A DNA stretch of 64,000 nt. Source: Hemileia vastatrix (taxonomy: Eukaryota; Basidiomycota; Pucciniomycetes; Pucciniales; Zaghouaniaceae). The notes under the pieces are model-generated. The model ran no database searches. It saw nothing but the letters and a program-made list of their open reading frames with translations, and was not told the origin of the DNA. Positions within the stretch are counted from its first letter, which is position 1, and every line of letters begins with the position of its first letter. Shown piece by piece: positions 3,201-44,983 of the stretch. The stretch covers positions 12,763,501-12,827,500 of the forward strand of contig JASXTE010000004.1 of assembly GCA_030280995.1 (NCBI GenBank), read 5' to 3'. Both the position numbers and the translations under genes were made by a program.

Positions 3201-3849
3201 ATATGCTAATTTTTAGGAAGTTAGGGCACTATTTCTTTTATATATATAGATAAAAATTTGGAAAAGAAAGAAAAGAACCTAAAAATAATATCTAAAAAAC
3301 AGGAGATCAGCTGTAGAAATAAAAACACTAATTAAAAAAATTTTCCAACTGAAACTCCTATTTAAAAATACCCAACATGACCTTTAAACCCATTAAGAAA
3401 CTAGAAAAGGATGTGAAATGTGGGGTAACTGAATGCAGAGTCTTGGAAGGCACTTTCACAGGTAAATCCTTGACTAATTTATTGAATTTAGGAAATTTTA
3501 GGAGTGATTGTGAACAGTGGCCATTGATCTTGAGTTAATGCAACTATTAGTGCATATAATAGGGGGTTTCAGTTCTGGAAAATCTGCACTTAAATTTGAC
3601 CAAATCCGCACTTATCTAAGTGCGGATTTATGAAACACACTAGCCCCAACACTGGTGGATTTCAAAAATGAAATAAGTCACTTATTTCACTCAAATCTGC
3701 ACTTTCTCAACAAAAAGTGCTGGTCTCACCATTCCACACATCTCACTGATTTTTCAGCATCATCTCATTCATATGAAGCACTCTGAAGCATAACACTTCA
3801 TATCTCTTAACATTGTGCATCATCTTCATTTTTCTACCATATAAGAGTC

Positions 3850-4975
3850 ATGCCTTCCTCACTCTCAAATTGTGATAAGCTACATCAAGCAATGACTTTC
3901 ATAGCTCTTGATCTGCTCTTGGACTTTGATTGAAAAACTGATTCTGGCTGTGAAGAAGATTTTCTTTTTTCATCGAAAATGACCACAAAACATTACCTTC
4001 TTCCTAGAAAGCTTCAAGTACACTATCCAAATACTTCTAAACCTATCCATACCTAGTTTTAGACAGCTTTTCAGGACTTCTCAGGAATGTCTCCTTAAAT
4101 TGCTTCATCTTATTGAGGATCACCTTGTGTTTCACAATAATTCTCAAAAGCCACAACATGATCCATCAATTCAATTGGCCATCACACTATTTCATTTGGG
4201 TTCCAATGGTAATGGAGCTGCCTTAAAACATCTGGAAAATGTATTTGATTTAGGATATGGTTCTGTTAACACTTACAAAAAACTTTGCATCACTGCTATA
4301 AACTTGTTGGAATCTAAACTTCTCTCCTGGCCAAAAAAGAAGAGCAACTTGAGTCATCTCAGGTTATGCAAACAGAGGGCTTCCCAGGATGTATTGGTTT
4401 TGTTTATGGTACTACAAATCCTTTGAGTCAGAAACCTGCTCATGGTGGAAAAAATTACTCTGACCATAAAAAGAGTTAGCTTTTTTTTTAATTCTTTACA
4501 TTCTTTTTCATACTAACAAAAGCAACTATATCTACTCTATAGATATTCAATTTCTTTTCAGCTTATTTGTGATGTCAACAAAAAATTTATATCTTTCTTT
4601 GCTGGCTATCTTGGATCATGTCATGACTCCTACATCTTTCAAAGAATGCAAATCTCAAAAGAGCCTGAATTTTTTTTGATGAAGATCAGTGTCTTCTGGC
4701 TGATACAGCTAATGTGAATGGAAAACATGTACTTCCTGTATTTCATGGAGCAGCTTCAGAAGAAAGTCAAAATGCAAAGCTCACCAATCATTTGGAAAAG
4801 TCAACAGTCTGTATTGAAAATTCTATTGGAATCTTGATAGGTCCTTTTTCCAGTTTAAGGGACTTAAGAAGTCCTCTTAGAAATAGTTCAAAAATGAAGG
4901 CTGTCATCAACTGTATTGTGTGTTGCACCATACTTCATAACCTACTCGCTGACCTGAAGATCAATGGTTAGAGTT
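3850..4975 (+). pseudogene. Harbinger-type DDE transposase pseudogene (H1)
   Basis: Encodes, over several frames, a DDE_Tnp_4-type nuclease that would cut and join transposon ends. It starts near 3850 (MPSSLSN), with an acidic N-terminal segment. The first catalytic block reads FPGCIGFVYGTT near 4381, the second FAGYLGSCHDSYIF near 4600, and the C-terminal block CIENSIGIL followed by SSLRDLRSPLRN near 4815-4880, ending CTILHNLLAD. An intron of about 90 nt (roughly 4469-4560, ending TTTTCAG) fits between the first two blocks. The second Asp and the Glu are present. The first Asp is replaced by Tyr (codon TAT), exactly as in H3. In-frame stops and frameshifts show it is dead. Family assignment is firm; exact exon ends are approximate. 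Confidence 0.85.
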
Positions 4976-5228
4976 GTATGAAGATGAAGAAGTTGAAACA
5001 CCTCCAACTATATCAAACACTACAAATCCTCAAACCACTAGCATAAGGGTAAAAACTCTTCCAATCATACTAGCACATTGGGAGTATTAGCTATGATTTA
5101 TTCTTAAAATTTTTTCTTCTCTTTAGGCATTGTAATCACATTATAATTTCTAAAAATCATTTACTAAATATACTTTCCTAATGATTTACATGCTTTTTGG
5201 TAATAATAATACACTTGTTCCATGTTTT

Positions 5229-6330
5229 TATTATTATCATCTAAAATTTATGAAAGAAAGTTATCACGCAAAAATTCCAACTTTTCTTTTTCTTTCATAA
5301 AAATATAGTCCAAAATATCTATATTTGGAATTAACATTTTTAAAGTTTTAACAGAATTGGATAATTTTTTACTTATCTGGATTGATGACCTAAGCATTGA
5401 AAAATTTCCAAACTCTTTGACAGGTGTTGTTTGATGGTATAGCATATTAGCTGGCCATATAACAACCCATATTTCATCACACTTTCAAACTCAACCATGT
5501 ATTTCAATTCAGGAAATACAAAATGACCTCCATTTTTTCTTAGCCTATTGCTGTCCCATGAGCATTCAGAAAAGATTCCATCTAAAGTTATTGAAAGCCA
5601 GACACCTAAAATAAGTTCACTGTTGTCCAAATCCTTATGGGGAGAATTCAAAAACCCAGCTGAAGTCCATGTTAGATTTCCCCCAAAAGCCTTCACCGCA
5701 TCATAACAAGGAAGGTCTATTTCAGCTCCAAGCTTCAAAGATTCCTCATAGTTCTTCTTTTCTAATAGTTTAAATAAATAAGAATAAAATTAAAATATAA
5801 AACCAAGTGCCTCCCTCACTTCCCCATCATCTATTTTCAAATTTTGGTAGAGACCTGAAGCATGATTCAGCTTTTTGAATTTGGAAATTTAAAATTTTCA
5901 ACTTAATTATATCAAATACATTTTGACTCCCTAACCGTTCTCCAGAAGCAAAAATATTCCCCTCTCCCCCTGCTTCCAGATGAGCACCATTGGTCTTTAT
6001 CAAGTGTCTTAATAATCTCATGTACCTGCAGCATTTCTTAGCATCCTCCAGTTTACCAAGTTCAGCCAATTCCTTTAGTTCAAATGAATTCACTATAAAA
6101 AGAATAATATTTTTATTTTTAGGTTGAATAACTGAAGACCTTTCTGAGACATTTGAAATTTGGTAGGTGCCTTTGTTGTGTGATCCAGGACATGATGAGG
6201 GTATCAGCTCATTTGTTTCAAATCCTTCCAGAAGTGGATACTCTTTATACCAAACCTTTTCAAATTCAGAACCAACATCATCCTTCCAACTTTCACCAGC
6301 CATTTGCATTTGAGAAGCTTTTTTTGTTCA
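5229..6330 (-). pseudogene. TET/JBP-like 2OG-Fe(II) oxygenase pseudogene (H1 cargo)
   Basis: The 3' part resembles the TET/JBP-like dioxygenase domain expanded in rust fungi. On the minus strand I see GGNLTWTSAGFLNSPHKDLD, with the metal-binding H-x-D as HKD (codons 5639-5631), then GGHFVFPELKYMVEF. After a frameshift near 5440 comes HQTTPVKEF with the likely distal His, and SSIQISKKLSNSVK near the C-terminus. An intron of about 60 nt lies near 5740-5800 (ends TATTAG). Upstream exons (about 5827-6309) encode a segment I do not recognise, with FELKELAELGKLEDAKKC and HLEAGGEGNIF. Such enzymes use 2-oxoglutarate and Fe(II), and TET relatives oxidise 5-methylcytosine; the substrate here is unknown. 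It sits between transposase and ORF2 in H1. The fold call is by motif memory only. Confidence 0.62.
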
Positions 6331-6454
6331 ACCATTGTGCCTTTGTCCACCCATTTAGATAATCTAGTTCTGAAATTAAAAAAAAATTCAATTATATAGA
6401 AAAGAAAAGAAAAAACCAAAAAAAAAATCAGCAAATTTTTATGATGGAATAAGG

Positions 6455-6735
6455 TGTACAACTAGTTAAACCAACATTCTCAGTATCTCAACAAAAATTT
6501 GTATTTAAAATCAATACAAATTTTTCCCGGTTGGGTTTAAATAATTCTGAAATAAATAAAAAAATTAAATAAAAGAAAATTAAAAATGAAATTAAAGAAA
6601 AGAAAAAAACAAAAAATATTTTCAGCAACTTTTTATGATAGAATAAGGTCTACAACTAATTAAAACAACATGCAGAGTATCTTAAGAGAATTTTGAAAAG
6701 CAATTCAAAACAATTTGGTCCTAGTTGGGTTTTAG
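6455..6735 (+). repeat. Duplicated ~190-bp spacer unit in H1
   Basis: Two imperfect copies begin ACAACTAGTTAAA / ACAACTAATTAAA (about 6459 and 6651) and end in GGTTGGGTTTAA / AGTTGGGTTTTA. Non-coding. The following 6750-6943 and 7746-7880 are T-tract-rich with repeated CCCCAGAAG / CTTCTGGGG blocks able to pair with each other. Confidence 0.5.
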
Positions 6736-6943
6736 GAAAGATTCTTCAGAGTGCCTGGAAAAGGCCCACCTTTTATGCCTTCAGATTTTGTTAAAGGCCC
6801 ATTTTTAAAATTTTTTGTTGCCCCAGCAGTTTTTTTTAAGTCAATTTTTTTTTTGCTTTTTTTTGTTCCAGAAGACTTGCTTCTGCTGGGGCTTCATTTT
6901 TTTTTAGAATTTTTTTTTATTTTTTTTTGCCCCAGAAGAATTG

Positions 6944-7740
6944 TGTCAAGGGGTCTTTTGGTCTAGAAGATTTATTTGAAGGTTCTTCGAGGATTCTAAG
7001 TGGTTTAATGGACTCTCAAAAGCAAGGTACATATTTCTTAATCTATTTGATTGTTTTTACTCAAATTATAAGAGGTAATTTTAAGTATTATTATAATTTA
7101 TATCTTTAGAATTACAGTAATGTAACTACTAATGTTTATAAATAATAGTAATAGATGTTTTATAAAAATTTGTAAGTAAGTAAAGGAATGAATCAAAAAG
7201 TACAAAAAGGAAGGGCCTTTTATAGGCAAAATGTGAGAAAATAAAAAGACGGAATTAACACCACCTAGTACAAGGGTGGAGGAAAAGAAACTAATTAAAG
7301 AGTGTATATGAAATAATAAGAGTAATACTAAATAGTGCGTAAATAACAAGTATTTATTTTATTTGAAATAAAACTCTGAATCCCTTGGTCCGTCACATTT
7401 AGTGCAAGAACATTTGATTTAAAATATTGAATCAATAAAATCTAAATAAAGGAATTTGAAAAAGTTTTCTTCTGTTTATAATTTTATATTTTTTAATACT
7501 AATTTTATTCCCATCTCATCTGTATTATTGAGAGCGGTGTTTGGGAGTAAAAATATATGTGACAGTTACTTATTTTTTATTAATTATCTATATTACTTAG
7601 TGTACTTAGCTAGTTAGTTGTAAGTAATACATAAGTAGTTAAATAAATAATTAATTATTAATAAGGATTTAAAAGGTGTGGCTTCACCTCAGTAAGATAA
7701 TCAATTATTTTACTGGGTAAGTCTAGTAGCCTGGCTGACA
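6944..7740 (-). mobile_element. Solo LTR A (gypsy-type), minus orientation
   Basis: A 797-bp LTR with ends TGTCAGCCAGG (at 7740, minus strand) and TTGACA (at 6944), flanked by a perfect 5-bp duplication AATTG (6939-6943 and 7741-7745). A TATA-like GCCTATAAAAGG lies mid-element on the minus strand. The copy at 47914-48729 shares both ends, the TATA block and a CTTCTAGACCAAAAG block near the 3' end. Inserted into H1, so younger than H1. No internal region is present, indicating LTR-LTR recombination. Confidence 0.9.
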
Positions 7741-8199
7741 AATTGTTTCTTCTGGGTCAACTTTTTATTTTTTTAAAAAAAATTTTTTTTAGCCCCATTT
7801 AAGCTTTCCCCAGAAGAGACAAGTCTTCTGGGGCAAAGAAATTACATGGCTGCCGCAGCAGACTTCCTTCAGCTGGGGCAACTACTTGGCACAAGTTGCT
7901 TGCGTTTTCAAGAAACTTGCCAAAAAAATTCTTGCTTGAAAACTTTATGTCTCAAAGAAGAAAATGATGCTGTGTGCTCTCTCTTGACATGACTTTTTAT
8001 TTATTCATTAGATTTTATCTAGGCCTGGTAGTGGTATGGCTCTAGTAGAGGGAAAAAAGTTGCTAGTTATGGGCCAGGTACCACCCTCAAGATTCTTCAA
8101 GAGCCACAGTGGTCAATAATGTAGTTTTTTTGGTATTATTTTTAACTTACAATTTATTTCTTTTTACTGCTTTTTTTTAATTATTTTTATACTTGAAAT

Positions 8200-8620
8200 T
8201 TGATTGAATTCAGGTGCTGAAAAGACACAGCATCTTTTCTTTTGCATGACTTTATTTCCATTTCTCTGGTGCAAGTTAGCATCTTGTATGGTCATTCAAA
8301 AATAAGAAAAAATAAATGTAGTGTTAAGAAACAACAGGTCACGTGCTGAAAAGACGCAGAATCTTTTATGCTCACTTGAAAATTTTGCATTTCACCAGTT
8401 AATTTGAAAAAAATCAATGAGGTAGAATAGACAGATGAACCTTGAGCTAGCATCTTGCATGGTCAATCAAAAAGAAGAAAAAAAGAATGTAGTGTTAAAT
8501 AACAACAGGTAACATGCTGAAATGACACAGTTTCATTTCTTCTCACTTGAAAGTTTTGCATTGAACCAGTAAATTGAAAGAAATTAATGAGGTCTAGCTG
8601 ACAACTTGAACTACAGAAAT
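8200..8620 (+). repeat. Tandem repeat in H1, three imperfect copies
   Basis: Copies marked by GTGCTGAAAAGAC / GTGCTGAAAAGACGC / ATGCTGAAATGACAC at about 8214, 8343 and 8513 are followed by a TCACTTGAAA-TTTTGCATT block and an ATCTTGxATGGTCA block. No coding potential. Confidence 0.6.
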
Positions 8621-8779
8621 TGAAATAAAGTCACATGATTGAAAATATGCTGGATCTTTTCAGCATGTGACTCAATCAAAATTCAGTCATAAAAATAATC
8701 AGAAAATCTACAAAAAGAATTTGTAAAAGACTATAAATGTGAAAAAATGTCACATTACCTGAAATAACAATTAATTAAT

Positions 8780-9391
8780 TAAAAAAGTCAAGCAATTTTT
8801 TAATTTCCTCATAAGTTTAGCCATTTTTTATACATTCTTTGATAAATTCTTTTTTTTTAAATTTTCTTGCTTTTCCAATTCATGATTTGCCATTTCTCTT
8901 TGAAATTCACAGCCTTACTTTCTCTGAGGAAAGATGAACTCTTTCCATCTCCTCTGCCACCAATCTGGCCTTTTCAAAATTAGATTGAAGCCAAAAATTT
9001 TTTACCTCCAAATATAAGGCCCTTTGATCTTTCACTAGCATATGATCAAACTTCATCTTCTCAAAGTCAAGGGCATTTTTTGCAATACAGGATTTTGCTA
9101 CGAAAAGATAAATGAAAAAATAAGTTATTGAATAATATATATAGTGACTTATTCTTATATCTTTTTTCTCCAAATAATCATCAATGGATGCCAAAGAGCT
9201 GGATGAAGTATTACCACATTTTAAAAGATGGTTCGAATTCATTGATGTTGAGGCCCAATGCTTTAGTTTAGAATTTGAGCTAGAGGGTTCAGGAAGTTCA
9301 TCTAAAGAAGCTTCCAAAGTGTGACTCTCATTTGTGAGATTGACAATTTTTTTTGAATTTGAGTTTGATTAGGAGTAGGAGGAGACTAGAA

Positions 9392-9431
<40 letters not shown>

Positions 9432-10157
9432 GAAATTGAGAGAAGAATTTAAGAAAAAAGTAAAAGTAAAAATACATCAAATGATTGTGGCTCTGAGGAC
9501 TCAGATCTGCTCCAAACTAATTGTTCTGCTTGATAGTCAGGATCATCTTTGGCTGAACTATGGTGAGAGGCTTCAGGGGATTGATCTCCTTCAAGTAAAG
9601 GTGTGTCAGGAGGATTATAGGAAGGTTTGGATCCAGAGGGTATATCCTTAGTAGTATTGTGTAGAAAAAAAGGGTTGACATCAACTTGGGAACTAAAAAG
9701 AATATCCATTTCTTCATAGTAAGGACAAATGACATTGAGCTTTTCTGAAACAGAAGTAATTCCAATCTCAAAATCCTCATCACTGACACCAAAGCCAGTG
9801 GAAGTGGAAGCAAAAAGAGCCTTTTTATATTTTAATTGATAACTTTTGAACCTCTCCTTCATTTACTTAGGAGCGATGTTGATTCTCCCCTTTTTTTTTC
9901 TTTACTTCATTTTACATCAACAAGAAGCCATATACCTTTGATGAAGGTGGATGTCCAATGCAGGTGGACTTCTCACATCCAAAACACGCATCATAATTTA
10001 ATTTTATTTTGAGGAAGTTCATGATGACAAGATAATCTTCCTTTTTTAGCTGTCCAGACTTTGGTTTCTCAGGTGATGGGCTAGCATTATGAGGAGACTT
10101 TTGTGATAAATAATTTTTTTGAGATTCCTTTTGAGTGTTGTATTTTTGGGGAGGCAT
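8780..10157 (-). pseudogene. Myb/SANT-like ORF2 pseudogene (H1)
   Basis: This is the Harbinger partner protein, a Myb/SANT-like (trihelix/NAM-associated) DNA-binding protein thought to help the transposase bind element ends. It starts at 10157 (MPPQKYN), with QLKKEDYLVIMNFLKIKLNY as the Myb-like helix region, then KMRERF-type and STGFGVSDED blocks, the SEKLNVICPYYEEMDILF block near 9750-9690, and a charged C-terminal coil (NFEKARLVAEEMERVHLSSE). Breaks: TAA at about 9912-9914, a frame change at a poly-A tract, a further stop near 9862, and a splice donor changed to ATAAGT where H3 has GTAAGT. Compare the intact homologue at 24979-26316. Confidence 0.85.
9388..9432 (+). repeat. (AAAG)n microsatellite in ORF2
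   Basis: About eleven AAAG units lie within the decayed ORF2 region of H1, in or near an intron position. Confidence 0.9.
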
Positions 10158-10505
10158 TATGAAACTGGCATGTTACAAGAAATGAAATTAAGAAAGAGGT
10201 TAAAAAAACCAGGGAAAAAACAAGACTAGTTAAAATGTTGCAATAAAATGTTTCAAATCTCAGTGAGGATGGAGGAGGGGATGGAGATCAGTGTGTCACA
10301 TGTGACAGGGATGGTATGGGCAAGGAAGGGATGATGTGGCCAACATGTGGTTGTAAAAAAAAATCACAAAAAAAGTGCTGATTTGAGGTCAGAACTGACA
10401 CCCATTTGTGAAATAAGTGACTTATTTGCAAAATTTAAGTGCTGATTTGGGTTGAAATCCACACTTAATTCAAGGGCGGATTTGCCAGAACTGACACCCC
10501 CTAAT

Positions 10506-14659: not shown

Positions 14660-15215
14660 TTAAGAATCAAGTTGCTTCATTTTTAATTCATTGACTTGTA
14701 ACTGAATTTTAGCATTCTCCAATTGAAATTCATTATTTTTAAGTTTTTTTTCATTCTCCCTTTGATACATAACCTTGAATCATGTAGATTTAATAGGCAA
14801 TAAAAAAATTTCAAGCTTACTACTATGAGCAGATTGAGCTCAGCAGTTTTTTCTTTAAATTCAGGAGAGTCAAGTTAAGTAACTAAAGGAAATTCTTGAT
14901 TATTTATATGACACTCAAAAATTTTTGGACCTTGATATATGTGCAAGGGGTCTACATTGGGCCTTTGTCCAAAGAGTTCATTCATTTGATCACAGAGAGG
15001 ACACATAGAGTTGAGTTTTTCAGAAAAAGATGAGATTTAATCTTTCTCATCATCTTTGGTAACTCCAAACCCAGTTGAAGAAGAAGCCATTCTATTTTCT
15101 AGTATTTTGCTTCATAGTTTTTAAACCTTTCCCTCATTTTCTTTATTTTCAAATCCATCTTAGCTCTAGTTTTTGATTTCAACCCCATTTCCTTTTAATT
15201 AAAGTAACTTAATTT
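14660..15215 (-). pseudogene. Myb/SANT-like ORF2 remnant
   Basis: On the minus strand, broken by stops and frame changes, I read MRERFKNYEAKY, ASSSTGFGVTKDDE, FSEKLNSMCPLCDQMNELFG and a C-terminal coil (NEFQLENAKIQLQVNELKMK). The order and motifs match ORF2 of E2 and H1. It is clearly non-functional. Confidence 0.75.
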
Positions 15216-16194
15216 TAAGATGGTTGAACAACCAACTTGAGTGGACTTTGCAAAATGTTAAAAGGATAGAAATTTGAGCAGAAAAAATCAATAAAGAAAG
15301 GAATCAAAAGATAATAGACTTACTTTGGTGTGAAAGAGAATGATCTGATTCAGAAAATACTGGAGAAGAGATGCTACATATAGTATAAAGGCTAGTAGTG
15401 AAGTAAGGTGATGTGCAGTTGATTGGGAAGATTTGGGTATTGGTGGGATGAATTATAACTTAGAAAGCTGTACAAAAGTAGAATATATTTGGAACCATTT
15501 TTGTGACCCCAAGTACCAAATAATCTAATTTTAATGGAATTTTTATATGAAATTTTTTAAATGTAACCAGATAGGCATATTTGGTAAGTTTTGAGACCCC
15601 CTAATATTTTTTCCCAAATTTTTAAGTATTTTCTTATATTTAACACAATTAAAATTTGATTATTATAATGGTAGAATGTTTTTTGTCATGACTCAAATTT
15701 TCTATTGTATATTTCTCATACAAAATGTTATATAGAAGTTTTTTTATGAATAAAATGATAAAATTCTAAATAAATGAATTTTAACAATTTAATAGAGTCC
15801 TTGAATATTAAAAAATCCTAAAATTTTATGTTGAAAACTTCTTTTCACATGGTGAAACTACATACAATTTCTGATTTCAATGTCCAGGAAACTATTGGCT
15901 GATTTTTCTATAAGATAATGAAGAAGAGGAGGAAGAAGAATAAGAAGAAAGGGAAGAACAAAGAGAGGGAATGAGATGATAACAAACAAAAGAGAAATAA
16001 CAACAGTATGTGGAAAGGGATTCTCAAGGGTGAAACTAGAAAGTAATATTTAATTTTCTCTACTTGATTTTTATTTTTCAAATTATTATATTCTGAGCTC
16101 TTATAACAAACTTATTATTTATATTTAGTAACTACTTGATAATTCATGGTTCAAGAAAGCCCCACGTAATTAAATAAAATAATAAATAGAAATA

Positions 16195-18228: not shown

Positions 18229-19465
18229 AATAGGGGGTATCAAAGCTGACTAATCCGCAATTAGGGATCAGAAATTTTTTTTCTCCAAATCCGACATTAT
18301 TGATTGTAAAAGATTCTTATCCACTAGCCCTGGGGCTAGTGGATAAGGAATCCACAATAATGCATTATCCTGCCTCTTATACCCCAATTCCTATTCCTAA
18401 TTCCTAATCCCAAACTCATCACATCCATGATGGATTTTTAAGAAATTCACATAACTTATAATTGCTGATGCCATCCTTAAGTCTTTCCTCACTCTATGCT
18501 GCTTAATTTTGGTGGTCAACACTTAAAGTTTTTTTCTATCTACACACCCCAACTGCACATTTGGCAGTGAATTCCCACCTCCCTCATCACTTAAGCCTTC
18601 CACTAACAACTATGAAACACCTCTCTACTAGGCAGCTACTTCACTCAACTATGAATGCTATCCCCCCTCTCTCAGAACTCTTTTCTAATCCCTTGGTCTC
18701 AATCTTCTCATCTTAACTCTCCTTAGCTGTCAACATCTTATTCCTCATCTCCCCCTCCTATATATCCTTCCACTGTAAGTTGAGTTTCCTTGATCTTTCC
18801 CTCTGGGTGCTAAGACTTGCTCTTCCCCTTCCCCTTCCACTTCTACCTCCCCTCCACTCCCCTCCCTTCTCCTTTCTACCCTCTTTCTTCCTTCCCTTCC
18901 CTTCCCATCCCTCCCTTCCCCACTTCACTGTTTTTCCAAGCCATTAATAAAATACATAAATAAATAAATAACCCACCCATAAATTAAATTGTGAAAATAA
19001 AATGTCACAACTCAACATAAAATCTTGTCACCTTCATTCATCTTTGTCTTGTGGGAGGCTGTTGTGGAAGCAATGGATGCTCTTGCTTCTGTTCTTCTCT
19101 TGATGATCTTCCCTCTTGTAACTAAGCTAAAATACTACTGCTACCCTCTTGTGTTTTTTTATCTGGCAATTGGGGTGTGAATCTTACATGTTTTTCCTCC
19201 TCAGTATTGCTTGTAATTGACTTGTTAACCCCCCATCCCTTTTCACTCTTCACCTTTCTTATTTTGTTTTTTGCTTCTTGTATCTCCTCCAAACCTCCCT
19301 TTTAATTTTTTCTCTCTTATATCCTCTCTCCCCACCCTCCTCCTCTCTCTCTCTCACACACACTCAAATTATGACCTACAAATCATGACACTTATACTGA
19401 CTCTCATTTTTTTTAAATCTCCATTTTAGCTGTCATCTTGTTATCCATCCTCTCCAAGGTGTTCT

Positions 19466-29693: not shown

Positions 29694-30182
29694 TTTTTAA
29701 TTGATAACTAGTTTAAAGTGGAATGTAACAATATACTATTTAAAATTAAAATATTTAATTTAGATTAAAATATGGAATGTAATTATATTAAATCATTGAA
29801 TAATTTCTATGACACAATTTTGAATCAAAAAATCACAAAAAAATTTATGTATCATAAGATATAAAAGGTATTAAATATTAGGGGGTTTCAGTTCTGGAAA
29901 ATCCTCACTTACAAATACACATTTAAATTTGACTAAATCTGCACTTATTTAAGTGCAGATTTCCAGAACACACTAGCTCCAACACTGGCGGATTTGAAAA
30001 TAAAATAAGCCACTTATTTCACTCAAATCTACACTTTCTCTACCAAAAGCGCTTATTTCACCATAATGTTCCATTTTACTGATTTGTCAGCATCATCCCA
30101 TTCATACACAGCACTTTGAAGCATAACGCTTCATAACTCAAAACATTGTACATCATTTACATTATTATACTGTATATGAGTC

Positions 30183-30420
30183 ATGCCTTCCTCACTCTCA
30201 AATTTTGATCAGCTGCATCAAGCAATGACTTTCATAGCTCTTGATCTCCTCTTGGACTTTAATTGCAATTCTGATTCTGATCTTGAAGAAGATTTTCTTT
30301 TTTTATCAAAAATGACCAAGAAACATTACCTTCTTCCAAGAAAGCCTATACCTCAAGTACACCATCAAAACAATTCTTAACCTATCTGTACCCAGGTTTA
30401 GACATTTTTTCAGGACTTCT
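30183..30420 (+). pseudogene. Transposase N-terminal fragment (H2)
   Basis: MPSSLSNFDQLHQAMTFIAL, an acidic stretch and KMTKKHYLLPRK match the start of the H1 and H3 transposases. It ends at a stop near 30380, and the similarity stops near 30420, where the downstream H3-like spacer begins. The whole catalytic region is gone. Confidence 0.8.
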
Positions 30421-31129
30421 CAGTAATTTTTCTTTAGAATGGTCATTCTTATTTTCATATTGACTTTGATTTTGAATTTTCTGTTATAGTCACTTTTTTC
30501 AAGTTTCTTTGTTTTCCTTCATCATATCAACATGAAATTGCATACTCTCTGCAATTGCATAATTTTTCAGTCGTTCCTTTTTTTCTTTCATCACTTAAAT
30601 CCATTTTCCCCTCTCCTCTTTCATCCCTCAAATAATTTGAAATAAATTGTTTTCTCAACTCACCTCTCCAGGTGAGTCATTTTTTATTTTTACTTATATA
30701 TTTGCTAATAAATTTATTATTTGTTTTTTTTTATTTTTTGTATCTAAATTTTTTTAGTAAGTGTTTATTTTTTGATTTCAAAGTAAAATTAACCTTTTTC
30801 CTTCTCTCCCTATTTTCTTTCTTTCTTTTGCTCCATCATCCTACTCTTCATCCCTCCTTGGCTTGGTAATTATTTTCCCTTTATCCTATTTCAATTTTTT
30901 TTTGGTTCCATTTCATTGAAACACATACATTGTACATTCTTGAAGCATTTAACTTGCTCCATATTCAATTTCCCCCAAATTCCAACTTCACTCTTTCTCA
31001 CTCTATTTTCCTAACTTTCAATCAAGGTATGTTTCATCTCCTTTTTTCATGTATATATAATATCTCATTCTTTCTATAAAGATTTCATACTTAAATATAT
31101 TTAGGACTAAATTATGGATAACAGTGGAC

Positions 31130-32120
31130 TTATTCAACTCCTCGTGTTGTTATTTTTATTATCACTTTTCAAGTTTTTGTAAACTTTTGAAAATCAGACT
31201 CAGAATTAGGGTTAGATTTATTCAACTCTAATCCCATTTTAACTGAAGATTCTTCTGAAGGCTATCTTTTATTTCTCACAAACAGATTTGAATTTGGTTA
31301 AGTGGTTACTGAGATATTGTCCTTTAAATTTGAGTCTTTTTTCCCAATTTGATTTTTTTTCTTTCATTTTTATATTAAAAATTAGGGTTAGGTTTAATTA
31401 AATCACATGTCCTTCAACTGTAGATTTTACTGAAGCATAGCTCTCATAACCCACAAACAGGTTGAATTAGGTTCAATGGTTGCTGAGATTTTGACCATTG
31501 AAGTTTAGCCTATTTTTAAAATTTTCACTTATCTTATTTCACATTTTTAAATTGCATAGTTTGAGAATAAGGATTCTGAAACTCTTATCTGATTATTATC
31601 TAATCTTTTATCTCCCTTTTTTTGGACTTATAATTATCACTTTTCAAGTTTTTGTACAAATTTGAAAAGTAGATTCAGAGTTAGAATTAGGTTTATTTGA
31701 ATCAACTGTGCTTTAAGCTGAAGATACTTCTGAAGCCTATCTTTCATGTCCAATAAACCAATTTGAATTTTGGTTCAGTGGTTGCTGAGATATTGAATTT
31801 TAAAGGTGTGCCTTTTTATAAAATTTAACTTATATTTATTTCATAATGCATATCACAATGTTTACATCATGCATTTATCCTTCCAGATTCCTTTGATTAT
31901 CTAGGCTTTTATCACCCTCTTGTTGGAATTTTCATTATCAGTTTATAAGTTTCTGTGAAATTTTGAAAAGCAGAGTCAGAATTAGGGATAGGTTTATTTG
32001 AATCTACTCTCCTATTAGCTGAAGATACTTCTGAAGCATATCTTTCATTTCAAGAAAACTGACTAGAATTTGGTTCAGTGACTTCTGAGATATTGAATTT
32101 AAAGTTGAGCCTTTTTTTCC
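31130..32120 (+). repeat. Diverged tandem repeat, 240-300 bp units
   Basis: About four copies, centred near 31160, 31390 (partial), 31650 and 31950, share TTTTCAAGTTTTTGTA, CAGAxTTAGGxTTAGGTTTATT, GAAGATACTTCTGAAG and GGTTCAGTGGTTGCTGAGAT blocks. GTATGT or GTGTGT donor-like sites after TCAATCAAG (31024) and TCATCAAG (32236) suggest a former intron-bearing gene, but I cannot name it. Confidence 0.6.
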
Positions 32121-32694
32121 CATTTTCACGTTCATTTATTTCATAAAGCATAAAATAATGTTTACATCATGCATATATCCTTCCAAATTCCTCAAACTAC
32201 CTTCCTCTTTACTTATTATTCTGCCCTTTCATCAAGGTGTGTTTTTTCTTTTTGTTACCATTTTCATATGTTTATCCTTAACACATTTTTGCTTCTCTTA
32301 TCAAATAAGTCAAAATTTAGTCCAATAAATCAGCAAGGTAGAAAAAGATGGTAAAATTGATAAATTTACAAACCTTTAGGCAGATAAAATTTTTTTAGGT
32401 ATTTGTAAAGTCATCAAATATTTTTTATTATTTCTTAAATTTTTAATAAATAAGTCTGATATTTTAATCTACTAAACTAAAGTAATGAGCCAGAAACCTT
32501 GTGTTGTATAAAAGGTAATCATGATAACAATAAATTTTTTCATGGGGCTCATCTTGCCTATACCTGTAGAAAGTGACAAACTTAGTTTCTAGAAATGGTC
32601 CACATTTTGGCTTGAGGAATTGTCATTACTTTAAAACTAGTGAATTTGACTTATCTTATTTATTTATTTACTAATTTATGGAATAATTCTAAAT

Positions 32695-32850
32695 TTTGGT
32701 GATTTTCACACCTTGCTTCAATAAAATTCAGGGGAGGGTATTGCCAAATTTTTAAATCTGACATGGAAAATCAATGAATTGGAGAAAATTTGTGATACCC
32801 ACCTCTTGCTTCAATAAAATGCAGGGGAAGGTATTTCCAAATTTTTAAAA
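32695..32850 (+). repeat. Internal GGGTATTGCCAAA inverted motif, H2 copy
   Basis: Same paired motif as in E2 and H3: CTTCAATAAAATTCAGGGG with GGGTATTGCCAAA, and GTGATACCCACCTCTTGCTT. Confidence 0.7.
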
Positions 32851-33079
32851 CAGATATATAATTTTGTTTACTTAGCTTTATTTAGAAATGCAAAATTTGT
32901 GGTGAGGTGATAAAATTATGTTGGTGATGAGGTTTTTTGCACAGGTGTCAGTATTATTTTACCATCTGAGATTCCAAAAGTGTTATATTTTAGAGTCCAG
33001 TAAGGAAAAATGGTGTTATCAGAATCTCATGATATAACTATATTTAATAAGTTTAAAAGTAACTATTAAATAAGGAAAC

Positions 33080-33310
33080 AAAAATAATATCCATTTCTTC
33101 ATAGAGAAGATACATGACATTGAGATTTTTGGAAACAGTAGTAATTCCATTCTCCAGATCATAATCATCAATACCAAAGCCAGTGGAAGTGGAAGAAAAA
33201 TGAGCCTTTTTGTATTTTTATTGATAGCTTTTAAACCTCTCCTTCATTTACTTAGAATTGATGTTGGTTCTCCCTTTTGTTTTCTTTTTTACTTCGTTTT
33301 CCATCAAAAA
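33080..33310 (-). pseudogene. ORF2 fragment (H2)
   Basis: The minus strand retains the block equivalent to STGFGIDDYD and the EEMD region, with KERFKSYQ-like sequence upstream. It is broken by stops and missing both ends. It corresponds to the middle of ORF2 in H1 and H3. Confidence 0.7.
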
Positions 33311-33681
33311 AAAGCAATTGACCTCTGATTAAGGTGGACATCTGATTTGGGGAGGTTGAAAACATAAAGAAAGAAGGAAAAAAACTTGCCTGGTTAAAAT
33401 TTCACAATAAAATGTTTCAAATCTCAGTGTGGGGTGTGTGCTAAGGATTGATGAGAGAATTGAGGTCTGAGTGTCACATGTGACAGGGTTTGGGTTGGTA
33501 AGGAAGCAATGATGTGGCCAACATGTGGTTGTGAAAAAATTGGGAAAAAAGTGCTGATTTGAGGTCATAACTGACACCCATTTTTAAAATAAGTGACTTT
33601 TTTGCAAAATTTAAGTGCTGATTTGGTTTGAAATCCCTACTTAAGTTAAGCGTGGATTCTCCAGAACTGACACCCCCTATT

Positions 33682-38291: not shown

Positions 38292-38549
38292 AGAAGGTGT
38301 CTGTTCTGGAATATCTTCACATATTTAAGTGCAGATTTATGAAATACACTAGCCCCAACACTGGTAGATTTCAAAATGAGATAAGCCACTTATTTCACTC
38401 AAATCCACACTTTCTCAACCAAAAGTTCTAACTTCACCATAACATCCCATTTCAATTATTTGTCAGCATCATCCCATTCATACTCACAGCTCTGAAGCAT
38501 AAAACTTTAAAACTCAAAACATTGTACATCATTTAAATTTTTATACCAT

Positions 38550-39690
38550 ATAATAATAATGACTTCCTCACTCTCAAATCATGATAAGCTGAATCAAGCA
38601 ATGAATTTGATAGCTCTTGATCTCCTCTTGGACTCTGACTGAAATTCTGATTCTGATATTGAAGAAGAACTTCTTTTTTTTCAAAAATTTCCAGGAAACA
38701 TTACCTTCTTCCTAGAAAGCCTCAAGTACTTCATACCCCTAAGTACACCATCCAAAAACTTCTTAACCTACCTGTACCCAGTTTTTGACAGTTTTTCAGG
38801 ACCTCTCTGGAATTTATTCTTGAATTTCTTGAGCTTATTTAGGACCACCCTGTCTTTCACATTAATTCTCAAAAACCACAAAGTGATCCTTCAATTCAAT
38901 TGTCCATCAAACTATGTTGATTGGGCTTCAATTGTAACAGAGCTACCTTAAAAAATTTGAAAAATGTCTTTGATTTAGGGTATGACTCTGTTAACGCTTA
39001 TACAAAATGATACATCACTACTATCAACTCCTTGTAATATGAAATTCTCATCTTGCCAACTAAAGAAGAGTGACTTACATTATCTCAGGCTTTGCAAGCA
39101 GAGTGCTTCCCAGGATGTATTGGGTTTGTTTATGGTACTACTATTCCTTTGAGTCATAAACCTGCTCAAGGTAAAAAAAATTACTTTGAAAAAAAAGAGG
39201 TAGCTTATTTTTAATTCCATTATTTCTTTTTCATTCATACTAACACAAGCAACTATATCTTCTTTATAGATATTAAATTTCCATTCAGCTTATATGTGAA
39301 ATAAAAAAATTTATATCTTTCTTTGCTGGCTATCTTGGGTCATGTCATGATTCCTACATCTTTCAAAGAATGCAATTTTCAAAAGAACCTCAAATATTAG
39401 TCAACAAATATCAGTATCTTCTGGTGTATTCTGCTTATGTGAATGGAAGGTATGTGATTCCTGCTTTTTTGGGAGCAGCATCTGAAGATATTCTAGATGC
39501 CAATTCAACAATCATTTGGCAAAGTCAAAAGTCTGTATTAAACATTATATTGGAATCTTGAAAGGCGTTTTTTCTAGTTTAAGGAATTAAAAAGTCCTCT
39601 TAGAGATAAATCTAAAATGGAGGCAGTGAAGAGCTGGATTATTTGTTGCACTTTACTTCATAACCTACTTGCTGACCTCAAAGATTAATG
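38550..39690 (+). pseudogene. Harbinger-type DDE transposase pseudogene (H3)
   Basis: Homologous to the H1 transposase along its length. Landmarks: FPGCIGFVYGTTIPLSHKPA near 39107 (first Asp replaced by Tyr as in H1), an intron with donor GTAGCT and acceptor TTCCATTCAG (about 39191-39288), FAGYLGSCHDSYIFQRMQ near 39325, YVNGRYVIPAFLGAASED near 39435, and a degraded C-terminal block near 39540-39680. Stops and frameshifts throughout. The shared Tyr suggests that the family multiplied after the change or that this position is misread by me. Confidence 0.83.
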
Positions 39691-39779
39691 GTTAGAGTTG
39701 TATGAAGATGAGAAAATTGAAACACCTCCCACTATATCCAACACTTCTATTTTTCAAAACACCAGCAAAAAGGCAAATA

Positions 39780-40270
39780 TTCTTCTAATTGCACTAGCAC
39801 ATTGGGAGATTTAGTTATTTGTTCTTAAATTATTACAAAATTTATTTCATTTTTATCTACTATTAATCTTACTTCCCACTTGGATTTTCTCCATCATTAT
39901 GCCAATAATACTCCAACTTTTCTTTTCTCAACAAAACCCTTTTAATTTTATTTTTCATACTCTTCAAATGATCAAGTTACATGCATTATTCTCTTGCTTT
40001 TGGAATTTTATTTTTGAATATTTAATATTATTTTGAATTTCCATTGAAAGTCTCTTTTTCCCTGTCTCATTTGTTTTTTTTCACCACCTCAACATGAAAT
40101 CACATATTTTCAGCTATCACATAATTTTTCAGTCATTCTTGTTTTCTTTCATCCCTTAGATTGTTTTTCTCTTCTCCTCAAAAATCCCTCAAAGAATTTG
40201 AAGTCTATTATTTTCTCAGCTCATCTCTCAGGGTAAGTCATTTTATTCCTTTTTATTTTTATATTTTCTA
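39780..40270 (+). other. Non-coding spacer shared by H3 and H2
   Basis: 40020-40240 aligns with H2 30460-30670 (CAACATGAAAT, CATAATTTTTCAGTC and CTTTCATC blocks), ending in GGTAAGTCATTTT / GGTGAGTCATTTT. This could be a leader and splice donor of the cargo gene. No protein recognised. Confidence 0.5.
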
Positions 40271-40439
40271 ATTGTTATTTTTCTTTTCTTTTCTTTTTTA
40301 TCTCATTTTTCTGGTAAGTGGTTTTGTTTTTTATTTTCAAGGTAAAATTAACTTTTTTTCCTCTCCCTCTTTCCTCTCTTTTTTTTCTCACCATCCTACT
40401 CTTTATCCTCCTTGGACTAGTCATTTTCCCCAAATTCAT

Positions 40440-41000
40440 CCCTCCTTAGCATGGACATATCCCCCTTTCCCTTCTCTTTGGATGCCTCTAACCCCCCTTT
40501 CCCCCTCCTTGGATACCTCTAACCCCCCTTATCCCCCCTATAACCCCCTCAAACCTCCATTTATACTGCTCCAAAACCCTCCTACCCCCCTTCTATTTGT
40601 TCAGTAACAAACAATCATTAATGAATGAGGAGATGGGGGGTCTGGTGAGGTTAGAGGGGGGATTAGAGGGGGTTTAGGTGGGTTCAAGGGGGGAGGGGGT
40701 TTGAAGTGCTTTTAGGGGGAGTTTGGGGGGATTTGAGGGGTATAGGAGGGGTTTCAGTGAGTGTTTTAAGGTGTTTTGATGCAGTTTGGAGGAGTATTTT
40801 GAGGGGTTTTGGTGAGGGTTTAGGTGGGTTCGAGGGGGGAGGGGGTTTGAAGTGCTTTTAGGGGGAGTTTGGGGGGATCTGAGGGGTATAGGAGGGGTTT
40901 TGGTGAGTGTTTGAAGGTGTTTGGAGGCATTTTGGAGGGGTATTTTGAGGGTTTTTGGTGAGGGTTTAGGGGGTTTGGAGGCAGTTTGAAGGGGGCTATG
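40440..41000 (+). repeat. C-run to G-run strand-switch spacer with direct repeats
   Basis: 40450-40600 is C-rich (CTAACCCCCCTT repeats), while 40625-41000 is G-rich (GAGGGGTATAGGAGGGG). The G-rich part contains a tandem duplication of about 160 bp (copies near 40670 and 40815). The two halves can partly pair. Non-coding; the long proline-rich frames on either strand follow from composition. Confidence 0.7.
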
Positions 41001-41189
41001 GAGAAGCTTTACAAGGGGAGAAATTGGACCAATAAGGCAGCCATTGAAAATTTGAAAGAAAAGTTTAACAACTTCTTTTAACATTTATCTTTTTTTTTTG
41101 TGCAGAATTAACCAAAAAAATTCCTCAAATTCAATTAAAGTAATAATTATTCTTAATAATTATTTGCAGAAAAATTTTAAGGTCTTTTA

Positions 41190-42514
41190 TTTTAAAATAT
41201 GTGAGGTTTTATTTATTTGAAAAAAAATTTTCTGATGTTTTTTTGACCAGTAAAAACTTTTTCAGAAAAAAAAGTTCTGTTTCTTCTGATTCAAGCCTTA
41301 CACCTCTATCTTCATCTTTATCTTCTTTATCATCTTCTTCAAAATCTATTTTGTTTCAATTTTCAAAAAAAATTCAGAAAAAAAATATCTTTTTCTTCTG
41401 ATTCAAGACTTATACATCTAACTTCATCTTTATAATCTTCTTCAATTTCTATTTCATATCAATCTTCTTCAAAACCTTCAAAAATAGAAAAATGATTATC
41501 AATATTATCAAAATAAAAGAATTAAAAAAAATACACTTGGATATTTTATTTGGCCACATATCAAACACCAAGTATTATAAAACTAAAGTTGATAAAAAAA
41601 ATACATATACCAAGAATTCACCTAAAGATATTGAATATCTAACCAAATTAGGAGGCAATGACAATAAGGCTGTAATCAGTAAAACCTTTAAACCTCAATT
41701 TATTTACAAAAATCATTCATTCAACAGAGTAAAAGATGAATCCTTTATTTGAATATCTGATCTCATATCTACACTATATCAAGTAGGTTTTGCTTTCTTA
41801 TCAATAAGGAATAAGAATTTGTTTGGTGTTATCATGATAGGTTTTGGATGGAGACCAGGATTTTTTAAAAGTTATTCACTTGGTAATTCTAATAATTTAT
41901 ATTGTTTCATTCTTAATATAGCTCACTCATTTTAGCTCTATATGAATCTATTCTTTGCTCAAAAATTAATCTAAAGTGGAAATAGATAATGATTTTAGTA
42001 AATGGGACTCTTTAACTTTCTTTAATTCTTTTCTTGCTCTTTTCCTTTAAAAACTCTGTAATAAAGCCTTTCAAAAAATCAAAATATCACAACTAAAGTA
42101 GGAATACCAAATTTGTTTCACTCTGAATGGGAAGAAATTAGCAATGAATATCTATTGTTTTTGAATGTTATAATCACTCATTCAGGATTTCATAACAATA
42201 TTCATACCAATTTGAATTATTCCAATTAATTTACTTTGGGGATCTTCTCTTATATCAATCCTATGACTGTACAACCTATTCCTTCACCTGCTAAAATCAA
42301 AGGACATGGTTTATATTTCTCAGATCATAGGTGTATAATTTATTTTGGATTAGGAAATGGATTAATTGTGTCTGTTTGGAACTCTTCTCACAATAATCAC
42401 CAGACAACAAAAGCTACTCCAGGTTTGGAATCTTGTCACACCTTTACTAATTTTGGCTTCTCCTTCCAAATAAGTCAAAAGCTAATCCATAGGATAAATA
42501 AGGTAAAAAAATAA
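41190..42514 (+). pseudogene. TET/JBP-like 2OG-Fe(II) oxygenase pseudogene (H3 cargo)
   Basis: The reading, with several stops, starts with a Ser-rich low-complexity segment (about 41280-41350; a duplicated block follows at 41393). Then DLISTLYQVGFAFLSIRN and VIMIGFGWRPGFFKSYSLGN (about 41820-41890) appear. The core has FHNNIHTNLN (about 42187), where the metal-binding H-x-D has become H-x-N. GIFSYINPMTVQPIPSPAK and GHGLYFSDHRCIIYFG follow, then IVSVWNSSHNNHQTT with the likely distal His (about 42400). The end is FGFSFQISQKL. The order and the FGxSxQIS ending match the TET/JBP-like oxygenase family abundant in rust fungi. The H1 cargo is a diverged relative on the opposite strand. Substrate unknown; clearly inactive. 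Confidence 0.72.
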
Positions 42515-42859
42515 GGTAAAACCAATAAAATTAGTAAAACTTTAGGTAGATCAAAAAGGTATGGGGACTTTCAAAGTCATAAAATATTTATAATTCTTTC
42601 ATAAATTTTTAATAAATAAATCTGATATTTTAATTTACTAAACTAAAGTAATGGGCCAAAAATCTTGTGCTGCATAAATAGTAATAACGACAACATTAAT
42701 TTTTTATAGGGTTCCTCTAGCCTATCCCTGTAGAAATTCCCAAACTTAGTTTCTAGACTTGATCTGAATTTTGGCTTGAAGAATTTTCATTACTTTAAAA
42801 CAAGTAAATTTTATTTATCTTATTTATTTATTTATTAATTTATGTAATTATATTAAATT

Positions 42860-43010
42860 TTGGTGATTTTCACCCTTTGATTCAATAAAATGCAGGGGAT
42901 GGTATTGCCAAAATTTCAAATCTGTCATGGAAAATTGATGACTTTAAAAAATTTGGTGAAGCCCACCCCTTGCTTCAATAAAATGCAAGGCAGGTTACTG
43001 TCAAATATTC
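42860..43010 (+). repeat. Internal GGGTATTGCCAAA inverted motif, H3 copy
   Basis: CTTCAATAAAATGCAGGGG and GGTATTGCCAAAAT next to GTGAAGCCCACCCCTTGCTT; same arrangement as in H2 and E2. The upstream 42540-42850 aligns with H2 32340-32690. Confidence 0.7.
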
Positions 43011-43259
43011 TAAACAGATATAGAATTTTGTTTAATTAGCTTTATTTAGAAATTAAAATTGGTGGTGAGGTGATAAAAGTATGTTGATGAGGACTTTTGC
43101 ACAGGTTTCATTATTATTTTCCATCTTAAATTCCAAAAGTGAAATATTTTAGAGTTGAGCAAGGACAAAATTTGTTATCAGAATCTCATGGTATAACTAT
43201 TTTTGATAATGTTAAAATTAAATATTAAAGTTATTCCCCAACCATTAAACAACAAAACA

Positions 43260-44640
43260 ATTAATCAATTAAAAAAGTCAAGTAATTTTTTGTTGTCCTC
43301 ATAAGATTGGAAATTTTTTAAACATTCCATAATAAATTCTATTTTTTTAAATTTTCTTCATTCTACAAATCACAACTTTCCATTTTTCTTTGAAAATCAC
43401 AGTTATTTGTTTTCTCTGAGAAAAGATGAACTCTTTCTATCTCCTCTGCATCAAATCTGGCTTTTTCAAAATTTGGTTGAAGCAAAAAAAAAATTTCCAC
43501 CAAATCTAAGGCATGTTCATCTTTCATTAGCAAATGATGAAATTTCATCTTCTCAAATCCAAGGGCATTTTGGGCAATAGAGGATTTCATTGAAAAAAAT
43601 GAATAGAAAAAATAAATAAATATTTTATTCAAGAAGATATACAGTGAAAAAACTTACTCATATCTTTTTTCTTAAAATAATTTTCAAGGAAGGACAAAGA
43701 GCTAGTTGAAGTATTACAATGTTTTAAGATATGGTTTAAGTTCATTGAAGTTGAGATATTACACTTTAGTTTGGAGTTTGAGCTAGAGGGTTCAGGAAGT
43801 TCATTTAAAGCAGCTTTCAAAGCAGGATTCTTGCTTCCAGAATCTTTAATATTTTTAGAAATTTGGGTTTGAGCAGCAGGAGAATAGAAAAGCATAAATG
43901 AAAAATTTAGAGAATAATTTATAAAAAAATGAAAAGTAAACACACATCAAAAGATTGGGGCTCTGAGGACTCAAATATGCACCCAAAATGATTGTTCTTC
44001 TTGATAGTCAGGATCATCTTCAGCTGAAGTATGGTTAGAAGCTGGAGGAGAGTGATGTTTTTAAAGAATAGGTGTTTTGGGAGAATTATTGGATGGTCTA
44101 GAACTAGAGGTTATATCCTTAGTAGTATTGTTTTAACCAAGGGTTGAAATCAACTTGTGAACCAAAAATATTATCCATTTCTTCACAGAAAGGACACATG
44201 AAATTGAGCTTTTCCAAAACAATTGTAATTCCACTCTCCAAATCATCATCATCAATACAAAAGCCAGTGGAAGTAAGATGAGCCTTTTTATATTTTGATT
44301 GATAAATTTTGAACCTCCCCCTCATTTGCTTAGGATTGATGTCAATTCTCCCTTTTTTTTTCTTCTTTACTTCATTTGAAATCAACACAAAGCCATTGAC
44401 TTTTTATGAAGGTGGACATCCAATTTGCATGGACTTCTCACATCCAAAAAATGCAATCATAATTTGATTTTATTTGAGGAAGTTAATGATGACGAGATAA
44501 TTTTACTTTTTTAGCTTTCCAGACTTTGATCACTCAGGCAATGGGCTTGCATTACAGGAAAACAATTGTGGTGATGCATTTTTTTAGTTGCCTTTTGAGT
44601 GTTTCATTTTATTGGAGGCATTATGAAACTGGTATTTTAC
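43260..44640 (-). pseudogene. Myb/SANT-like ORF2 pseudogene (H3)
   Basis: The minus strand contains, from 44388 down, ANEVKKK-like sequence, INPKQMRGRFKIYQSKYKKA, TSTGFCIDDDDLESGI, LEKLNFMCPFCEEMDNIFGS, LPEPSSSNSKLK (about 43790) and a coiled C-terminus (FEKARFDAEEIERVHLFSEK, about 43450). The donor GTAAGT near 43660 is kept, unlike in H1. Several frameshifts and stops; the start codon region (about 44620) is degraded. Confidence 0.82.
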
Positions 44641-44983
44641 AAGTAAAGAGATTAAGAGGTGGAAAACATAAAAAAACAAGGAAAAAAACATGCCTGGTTA
44701 AAATGTCACAATAAAATGTTTCAAATCTCAGTGAGGGGTGTGTGCCAAGGATTGATGAGAGGATGGTGGTCTGGATGTCAAATATGAGAAGGAAAGGGTG
44801 GGAAAGGAAGGGATGATGTGGCCAACATGTGGTTGTGAAAAAAAATTGAGAGAAAGTACTGATTTGAGGTCATAACTGACAGCCATTTTTGAAATAAGTG
44901 ACTTTTTTGCAAAATTTAAGTGCTGATTTGGTTTGAGGTCCACACTTAAGTTAAGTGCCAATTTTCTGGAACTGTAACCCCCT

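What the first reader, a model, noticed from the sequence alone, without database searches (positions are those of the whole stretch)
3561..44983. Harbinger-like transposons carrying TET/JBP-like oxygenase genes
Two copies of the same PIF/Harbinger-like family (H1 and H3; same TIRs, transposase and ORF2) each carry a different TET/JBP-like 2-oxoglutarate/Fe oxygenase remnant between transposase and ORF2. One is on the minus strand (5229-6330, with H-x-D as HKD), the other on the plus strand (41190-42514, H-x-D changed to H-x-N). The genes are diverged and oppositely oriented, which suggests independent capture or a long-lasting association. Fungal TET/JBP genes have been linked to KDZ-type transposons; an association with PIF/Harbinger would be a different partnership. 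A transposon with its own putative modified-cytosine oxidase could counter host methylation silencing. The function is inference.
Basis: partly seen in the sequence, partly recalled or inferred. Interest (0 to 1): 0.88.

Follow-up and report, generated by a model that had tools for sequence, protein, structure and literature searches.

The report
Rust transposons that swap TET-like genes
Two decayed jumping genes in a rust fungus each carry a gene resembling enzymes that remove DNA methylation marks; that pairing is already known, but here the same transposon family carries either of two very different versions of the gene, pointing in opposite directions.

Summary
H1 (3562-10501) and H3 (38293-44982) are copies of one Harbinger-like family. 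Each carries a different PF20515 (Tet-like oxygenase) remnant between transposase and ORF2, antisense in H1 and sense in H3. An empty site shows that H3 inserted as one unit. The claimed novelty does not hold: TET-carrying Harbinger elements of rusts were published as PHISTA (Kojima 2025, PMC12730594).

New here, from the window's own genome: two backbone families (A, B) each occur with either TET type, and each type keeps its strand and place. Transposase and ORF2 trees group by backbone, the TET tree by TET type, and congruence is rejected. So the TET slot has been switched within a transposon lineage. Between-lineage dN/dS values for TET are 0.09-0.27, against 0.47-0.81 among recent copies. 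Copies decay mainly at CpG, including the CpG at H3's catalytic Asp codon. Countering methylation silencing is the likeliest function, but it is inferred; activity is untested. Contexts are chosen best hits, not a random sample.

The parts
3562..10501 (+). H1: PHISTA-like element of backbone A with antisense TET (type A-), TA on both sides
   Evidence: TIR matches 3562-3578 and 10485-10501 without mismatch; TA outside both ends
3983..4971 (+). H1 transposase remnant (DDE_Tnp_4)
   Evidence: 126 + 189 query residues aligned to L050 transposase ORFs
5167..6354 (-). H1 TET-like oxygenase remnant, pieces in different frames (6354-5830, 5870-5484, 5484-5167; intron or frame change between the first two not determined); HKD codons at 5631-5639 (read by eye)
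   Evidence: PF20515 E 1e-11 for 5373-5789; 83-88% identity to open relatives L023 and L024
8907..10181 (-). H1 ORF2 (third protein) remnant
   Evidence: 65-69% to L050 ORF2
38293..44982 (+). H3: PHISTA-like element of backbone A with sense TET (type A+)
   Evidence: TIRs with 3 mismatches each; empty site 23311-23578
38643..39690 (+). H3 transposase remnant
41534..42514 (+). H3 TET-like oxygenase remnant (a start near 41280 is by eye only); H-T-N codons at 42203-42211
   Evidence: PF20515 for 42065-42229 and 42230-42514; alignment to L049 41534-42511; codons
43363..44664 (-). H3 ORF2 remnant
29881..33677 (+). H2: third family-A copy, internally deleted; keeps the 3' end of a sense TET (32269-32358) and an ORF2 piece
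18233..26681 (+). H4: backbone-B element with sense-TET scrap (23761-23865), an inserted repeat in the TET region (about 22904-23761), ORF2 (24979-26517 -), and a protein kinase where the transposase would be
   Evidence: TIRs, BLAST to L045-L048 and L070-L072, PF00069
34738..36103 (+). H6: short derivative with backbone-B ends and an ORF2 start remnant (35674-35889 -)
   Evidence: TIR matches 34736-34747 and 36081-36103; 54% to H4 ORF2, E 6e-12
14827..15248 (-). H5: ORF2 scrap of a more distant relative whose right end is near 15601
   Evidence: 30-44% identity to the other ORF2; end motif 15583-15603, no left end found

Best explanation
H1 and H3 are old, broken copies of PHISTA-type Harbinger DNA transposons of a rust fungus. 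A fuller element carries three genes: a DDE transposase, a TET-like Fe(II)/2-oxoglutarate oxygenase, and ORF2, which may be a diverged Myb/SANT-like DNA-binding partner of the transposase (weak hit only). The slot between transposase and ORF2 can hold either of two anciently diverged TET genes: one antisense next to the transposase, the other sense and farther from it. The slot has been refilled more than once while the flanking genes stayed, so A-, A+, B- and B+ elements exist. Shown: the anatomy, the four combinations, the incongruent trees, past purifying selection on TET, and CpG-biased decay of copies. Inferred: the TET oxidises 5-methylcytosine on element copies, so that they stay expressed and mutate less at CpG; when that protection fails, copies decay at CpG, in H3 at the CpG that holds the catalytic Asp codon.
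For: Unit mobility: empty site of H3. Of the 29 best other relatives of the H1 TET, 26 have a transposase piece antisense beside it (exceptions L015, L021, L037). In 8-kb contexts, antisense-TET loci have an antisense transposase in 9 of 10 and ORF2 in 10 of 10; sense-TET loci have a sense transposase in 8 of 8 and ORF2 in 7 of 8. In three capped hit lists of 150, 11 of 11 transposase/sense-TET pairs are sense at 1.9-2.6 kb; of 14 transposase/antisense-TET pairs within 6 kb, 12 (H1 among them) are antisense at 0.7-0.83 kb (the lists partly overlap the loci above). An A- and an A+ copy share 30 end bases exactly (L041, L052). Mean identity: transposase A-/A+ 77%, B+/B- 67%, A/B 45-56%; ORF2 A-/A+ 64%, A/B 47-49%; TET A+/B+ 57%, A-/B- 58%, A-/A+ 26-29%. 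Transposase and ORF2 reject grouping A- with B- (AU p 4e-96, 3e-50); TET rejects grouping A+ with A- (p 4e-87). TET dN/dS between lineages 0.09 and 0.10 (others 0.13-0.27) against 0.47 and 0.81 among recent copies. C-to-T at 52 of 358 CpG sites against 28 of 2789 other C in 13 A+ TET copies.
Against: No enzyme activity, expression or methylation data were available. No solved TET structure was found by sequence, and no TET homologue in the protein collection. dN/dS used open frames only, which favours low values, and dS between lineages is near or past saturation (1.35 and 2.5). CpG depletion of the whole window (o/e 0.18) and of three A- copies (0.07-0.11) shows that TET carriage does not protect old copies. 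In the A- region the CpG excess is smaller and rests on few columns (16 of 58 against 1145 of 16218). Some copies have lost iron-binding residues (L012, L013, L035, L043, L054).
Confidence: 0.72

Rival explanations
1. Ancestral two-TET element with differential loss: the ancestor carried both genes (transposase> <TET-, TET+> <ORF2), and each lineage lost one or the other, without any exchange.
For: Both TET types occur in both backbones with about the same A/B divergence as the transposase (TET 57-58%, transposase 45-56%). Fixed, different places of the two genes fit one ancestral order.
Against: No locus with both genes was seen: none among the 18 eight-kb contexts and no pair within 6 kb in two capped lists of 150. 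The A- and A+ modules compared (L041, L050) share no DNA at E 1e-5 although their flanks are 77-83% identical. L051 has a B transposase (82-83% to B+) but a TET 76-77% identical to A+ and 58-60% to B+, which loss alone does not give.
Confidence: 0.2
2. The TET genes do something other than help the transposon against 5mC silencing: another DNA or RNA substrate, a host role, or passive cargo.
For: Kojima notes that another activity of PU-type proteins cannot be excluded; CcTET also acts on 6mA. H1, H2 and H3 are more CpG-poor than the window as a whole (0.12, 0.09, 0.03 against 0.18).
Against: dN/dS of 0.09-0.27 between lineages and one TET kept in each of the 18 elements read (chosen by their TET) argue against passive cargo; H, D and H invariant in ten chosen open copies.
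Confidence: 0.25
3. Chance: oxygenase genes belong to separate elements that happened to insert into H1 and H3.
For: Nested insertions do occur (H4; end-like motifs between TET and transposase in L030).
Against: Same order and strand in 26 of 29 other loci and in the pairs; one-piece insertion of H3.
Confidence: 0.02

Closest known systems
PHISTA (TET+ Harbinger of Pucciniales), Kojima 2025, PMC12730594
   Same: Rust host, DDE transposase of Harbinger type, TA duplications, TET/JBP-like gene, a third protein
   Different: The text read there does not discuss PHISTA TETs on opposite strands within one family nor a two-by-two exchange of TET types; it says that no third protein has a Myb/SANT domain, while here 3 of 9 ORF2 sequences hit PF13837 weakly. 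Figures, tables and supplements were not seen.
KDZ (Kyakuja/Dileera/Zisupton) transposons with TET/JBP genes (Iyer et al. 2014, known here only through Kojima's text)
   Same: DNA transposons of basidiomycetes with their own TET/JBP gene
   Different: Other transposase superfamily; the Dileera Zisupton-1_PGr makes 8-bp duplications
Canonical PIF/Harbinger and Nuwa (transposase plus Myb/SANT protein)
   Same: Backbone of transposase plus a second protein
   Different: 3-bp duplications; absence of a TET in canonical elements is recalled, not looked up
CcTET of Coprinopsis cinerea
   Same: Fungal transposon-related TET with HxD and a distal His
   Different: AG type with measured 5mC and 6mA activity; not compared by sequence here, and the proteins here are unmeasured

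Membership tests
PHISTA | TA target-site duplication | tested here: met
   TA at all six ends of H1-H3; whether TA is duplicated or part of the end rests on one empty site, 69% identical, for H3
PHISTA | DDE transposase of Harbinger type | tested here: met
   PF13359 E 4.5e-26 (L050) and 3.3e-23 (L014); window pieces weak
PHISTA | Transposase falls in the PHISTA clade of the Repbase tree | not testable with these tools
   Repbase and Kojima's data files are not held
PHISTA | TET/JBP-like gene inside the element | tested here: met
   PF20515 111.5, 110.2 and 76.8 bits in open copies; empty site
PHISTA | Third protein present, without Myb/SANT domain | tested here: inconclusive
   Present; 3 of 9 members hit Myb_DNA-bind_4 at E 0.0014-0.018, all under the cut-off; no PDB match; AF2 model of no use (pLDDT 46.9)
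PHISTA | Host in Pucciniales | tested here: met
TET/JBP oxygenases | HxD...H iron-binding residues | tested here: met
   Invariant H204, D206, H269 in 10 chosen open copies; H3 has HTN, and L012, L013, L035, L043, L054 have also lost one (L012 and L043 are the same element)
TET/JBP oxygenases | Fold and 5mC oxidation | not tested
   No structure job on TET; no sequence match in PDB

The most novel reading that the evidence does not exclude
The slot between transposase and ORF2 is an exchangeable anti-silencing cassette: PHISTA lineages repeatedly swap one TET for a distantly related one on the other strand, as an arms race with host methylation, much as phages swap anti-defence genes.
Probability: 0.35. 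Interest if true: 0.75.

Novelty: new variant of a known kind. Interest (0 to 1): 0.52.

Why it matters
Whether transposon-borne TETs really protect their carriers is open. A genome with four natural combinations of two backbones and two TET types makes it testable: spread, age, methylation and CpG decay can be compared between elements that differ mainly in the TET they carry.

Tried and rejected
Protein-collection searches with the H1 TET found nothing, and PDB searches found no TET. The AF2 model of the ORF2 domain (3 window rows) had pLDDT 46.9 and was not used for a fold search; no TET fold was run. A TET-like tblastn hit at 1181-1303 looks by eye like Helitron helicase and was dropped. 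TCG as the special mutation context: TCG 34 of 205, GCG 9 of 51, ACG 4 of 50, CCG 5 of 52, so CpG in general. In one search the printed label 'ORF2 antisense' for L048 means nothing, because L048 has no ORF2 hit. In one search one A- transposase frame (L024) is partly another frame, so transposase ratios there (A+ against A- 0.29) are not relied on; the A-against-B transposase ratio was not given, and pairs with unusable dS were dropped (one of 66 in A+, one of 7 for A- against L071). The codon pattern missed L058. The host methyltransferase search (PF00145) and the genome search with the H3 TET never ran. Papers: Kojima 2025 in named sections; PMC12210899 and PMC13297926 only as passages; others only as listings.
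Full report
WHAT IS THERE. The window (64 kb, GC 30%, CpG observed/expected 0.18) lies in a 748-Mb genome of 791 contigs. Two of the eight ORF2 homologues found are named and come from Phakopsora pachyrhizi and Puccinia sorghi, so the host is most likely a rust fungus; its species was not identified. Three family-A copies lie in the window: H1 3562-10501, H2 29881-33677 and H3 38293-44982. They share ends TA|GGGGGT(T/G)TCAGTTCTGG (7 matches, 0.07 expected, H3 with 3 mismatches per end). H1 and H3 are alike at both sides (80% and 78%) but not in the 3.4-3.7 kb between transposase and ORF2. That central part holds the oxygenase: antisense in H1 (PF20515 E 1e-11), sense in H3 (E 3e-5 and 0.0014 for two pieces, each under the cut-off). 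H2 is an internally deleted relative of H3 that keeps the last codons of a sense TET and the following 0.8 kb.

ONE INSERTION, NOT NESTED CHANCE. The joined flanks of H3 align across the junction to 23311-23578, an empty copy of the repeat that H3 interrupts (68.8% over 295 columns, E 7e-22). Transposase, TET and ORF2 of H3 therefore arrived together. In the genome, 26 of the 29 best other relatives of the H1 TET have a transposase piece on the opposite strand beside it (none found in L015 and L021, same strand in L037).

FOUR COMBINATIONS. Eighteen contexts of about 8 kb were read (6, 4, 4, 4), all chosen from best hits. Family A has ends like GGGGGTGTCAGTTCTGGCAAATCCGCAC (seen, with variation, in L039, L041-L044, L050, L052; not found in L049, which is placed by its transposase). 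Family B has ends beginning GGGGG.ATCAATGTT, with variation (seen in L046, L047, L051, L069-L072; L045 and L048 are placed by their transposase). Both backbones occur with an antisense H1-type TET (A-: L039-L044; B-: L069-L072) and with a sense H3-type TET (A+: L049, L050, L052; B+: L045-L048, L051). Antisense TETs had a transposase in 9 of 10 (not L040) and ORF2 in 10 of 10; sense TETs had a transposase in 8 of 8 and ORF2 in 7 of 8 (not L048). From three capped hit lists of 150 each, which partly overlap these loci, the 11 transposase/sense-TET pairs within 6 kb were all sense at 1.9-2.6 kb. Of 14 transposase/antisense-TET pairs, 12 (one is H1) were antisense at 0.7-0.83 kb; the other two were 3.4 kb (sense, a neighbouring element) and 5.8 kb apart. 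No sense and antisense TET lay within 6 kb of each other in those lists.

THE TET SLOT SWITCHES. Mean identities: transposase A-/A+ 77%, B+/B- 67%, A/B 45-56%; ORF2 A-/A+ 64%, A/B 47-49%; TET A+/B+ 57%, A-/B- 58%, A-/A+ 26-29%. The transposase tree of 19 rows splits A from B at 100/100, puts H3 beside A- (89/87, not a firm branch), and needs at least 3 changes of TET strand (one depends on the long-branched L072). ORF2 (18 rows), on the other side of the slot, also splits A from B at 100/100. The TET tree splits by TET type at 100/100. AU tests reject A- with B- on the transposase (4e-96) and on ORF2 (3e-50), and A+ with A- on TET (4e-87). A second mismatch is L051: transposase 82-83% to B+, TET 76-77% to the young A+ copies but 58-60% to B+; at DNA level L051 and L050 are 79% identical over 1.6 kb of the TET region against 70% in the transposase. 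In the tree of sense TETs alone, unrooted, B+ is not excluded as one side of a branch (82/86); with antisense TETs as outgroup L051 joins A+ at 100/100. An ancestor with both TETs and later losses remains possible, but does not explain L051, and no such element was seen.

SELECTION AND DECAY. Between lineages dN/dS is 0.09 (sense TET, A+ against L051/L062, 24 pairs, dS 1.35), 0.27 (A+ against L063-L066, 48 pairs, dS 1.31), 0.13 (L063/L064 against L065/L066, 3 pairs) and 0.10 (antisense TET, A- against L071, 6 pairs, dS 2.5, saturated); L051 against L062, close to each other, is 0.25 (dS 0.09). Among copies within A+ and A- it is 0.47 (65 pairs) and 0.81 (21 pairs). Only open frames were used, which favours low values. 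Both TET types look kept by selection while elements were active; single copies then decay. Among 13 A+ TET copies, C-to-T (or G-to-A) is found at 52 of 358 CpG sites against 28 of 2789 other C sites; in 30 A- loci the contrast is 16 of 58 (few columns) against 1145 of 16218. The catalytic Asp codon of A+ copies lies in ACCGAC, a CpG. Of 12 A+ copies that the pattern found, 8 keep it, 3 have the silent ACTGAC, and one (L054) has ACCAAC, giving HTN; H3 has ACCAAT, also HTN. Stretches with A+ copies are less CpG-poor (0.24-0.36; L049, L050, L052) than three A- copies (0.07-0.11) and H3 (0.03).

HOW IT PROBABLY WORKS. Transposase and ORF2 move the element (ORF2 may be a far relative of the Myb/SANT partner of Harbinger: 3 of 9 members hit PF13837 at E 0.0014-0.018, all under the cut-off; AF2 gave no usable model). 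The TET would oxidise 5-methylcytosine on the copies and so keep them expressed. This step is inference from family membership, selection and CpG decay. PMC12210899 (passages) reports DNMT1 and DNMT5 in all 12 genomes it studied; I could not search this genome for them.

AGAINST WHAT IS KNOWN. Kojima 2025 (PMC12730594, sections read) describes TET-carrying Harbinger of rusts, lineage PHISTA, with 15 families in six species, TA duplications and a third protein, and proposes escape from methylation. Kojima reports transfer of TET genes between superfamilies and finds PHISTA TETs in more than one TET cluster (P2, P6). The passages found discuss gene orientation for IS3EU and hAT7, not for PHISTA; figures, tables and supplements were not seen. 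New against that text are the two TET types on opposite strands in one family with the same ends, the four combinations, the selection estimate and the CpG at the catalytic codon. Among the listings shown by three searches (20 of 202, 12 of 19, 8 of 205 papers) no other title or abstract start names the pairing; a 2026 review cites Kojima and says these enzymes are yet to be functionally characterised (PMC13297926, passages). Verdict: a known kind of element, with a new variant of how its TET gene is held and exchanged.

Noticed in passing
window 18233-26681, kinase ORFs 19430-20728 and 20729-21523 (+): H4 has backbone-B ends and ORF2, but a Ser/Thr protein kinase (PF00069, E 2.4e-16 and 2.5e-11) lies where the transposase would be. 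The genome holds one 82%-identical copy with an 844-aa open frame, two broken copies (73-74%) and a few far kinase matches: perhaps a host gene captured by the transposon.
   Followed up: partly
window about 22904-23761 and around H3 (38213-38292, 44985-45192): Copies of one repeat, LTR-like by eye: one interrupts the TET region of H4, another is interrupted by H3. Gag- and protease-like ORFs follow at 45534-46851, by eye only.
   Followed up: partly
window 850-1745 (-): Looks by eye like a broken Helitron/PIF1 helicase.
   Followed up: no
window 11700-12900: More than 1 kb of T-rich simple repeat reading as long open frames in several frames.
   Followed up: no
window 24000-24530 and 31100-32200; L045-L048: Tandem repeats sit beside or in place of the TET in several elements (H2, H4); seen by eye and in overlapping BLAST hits.
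   Followed up: no
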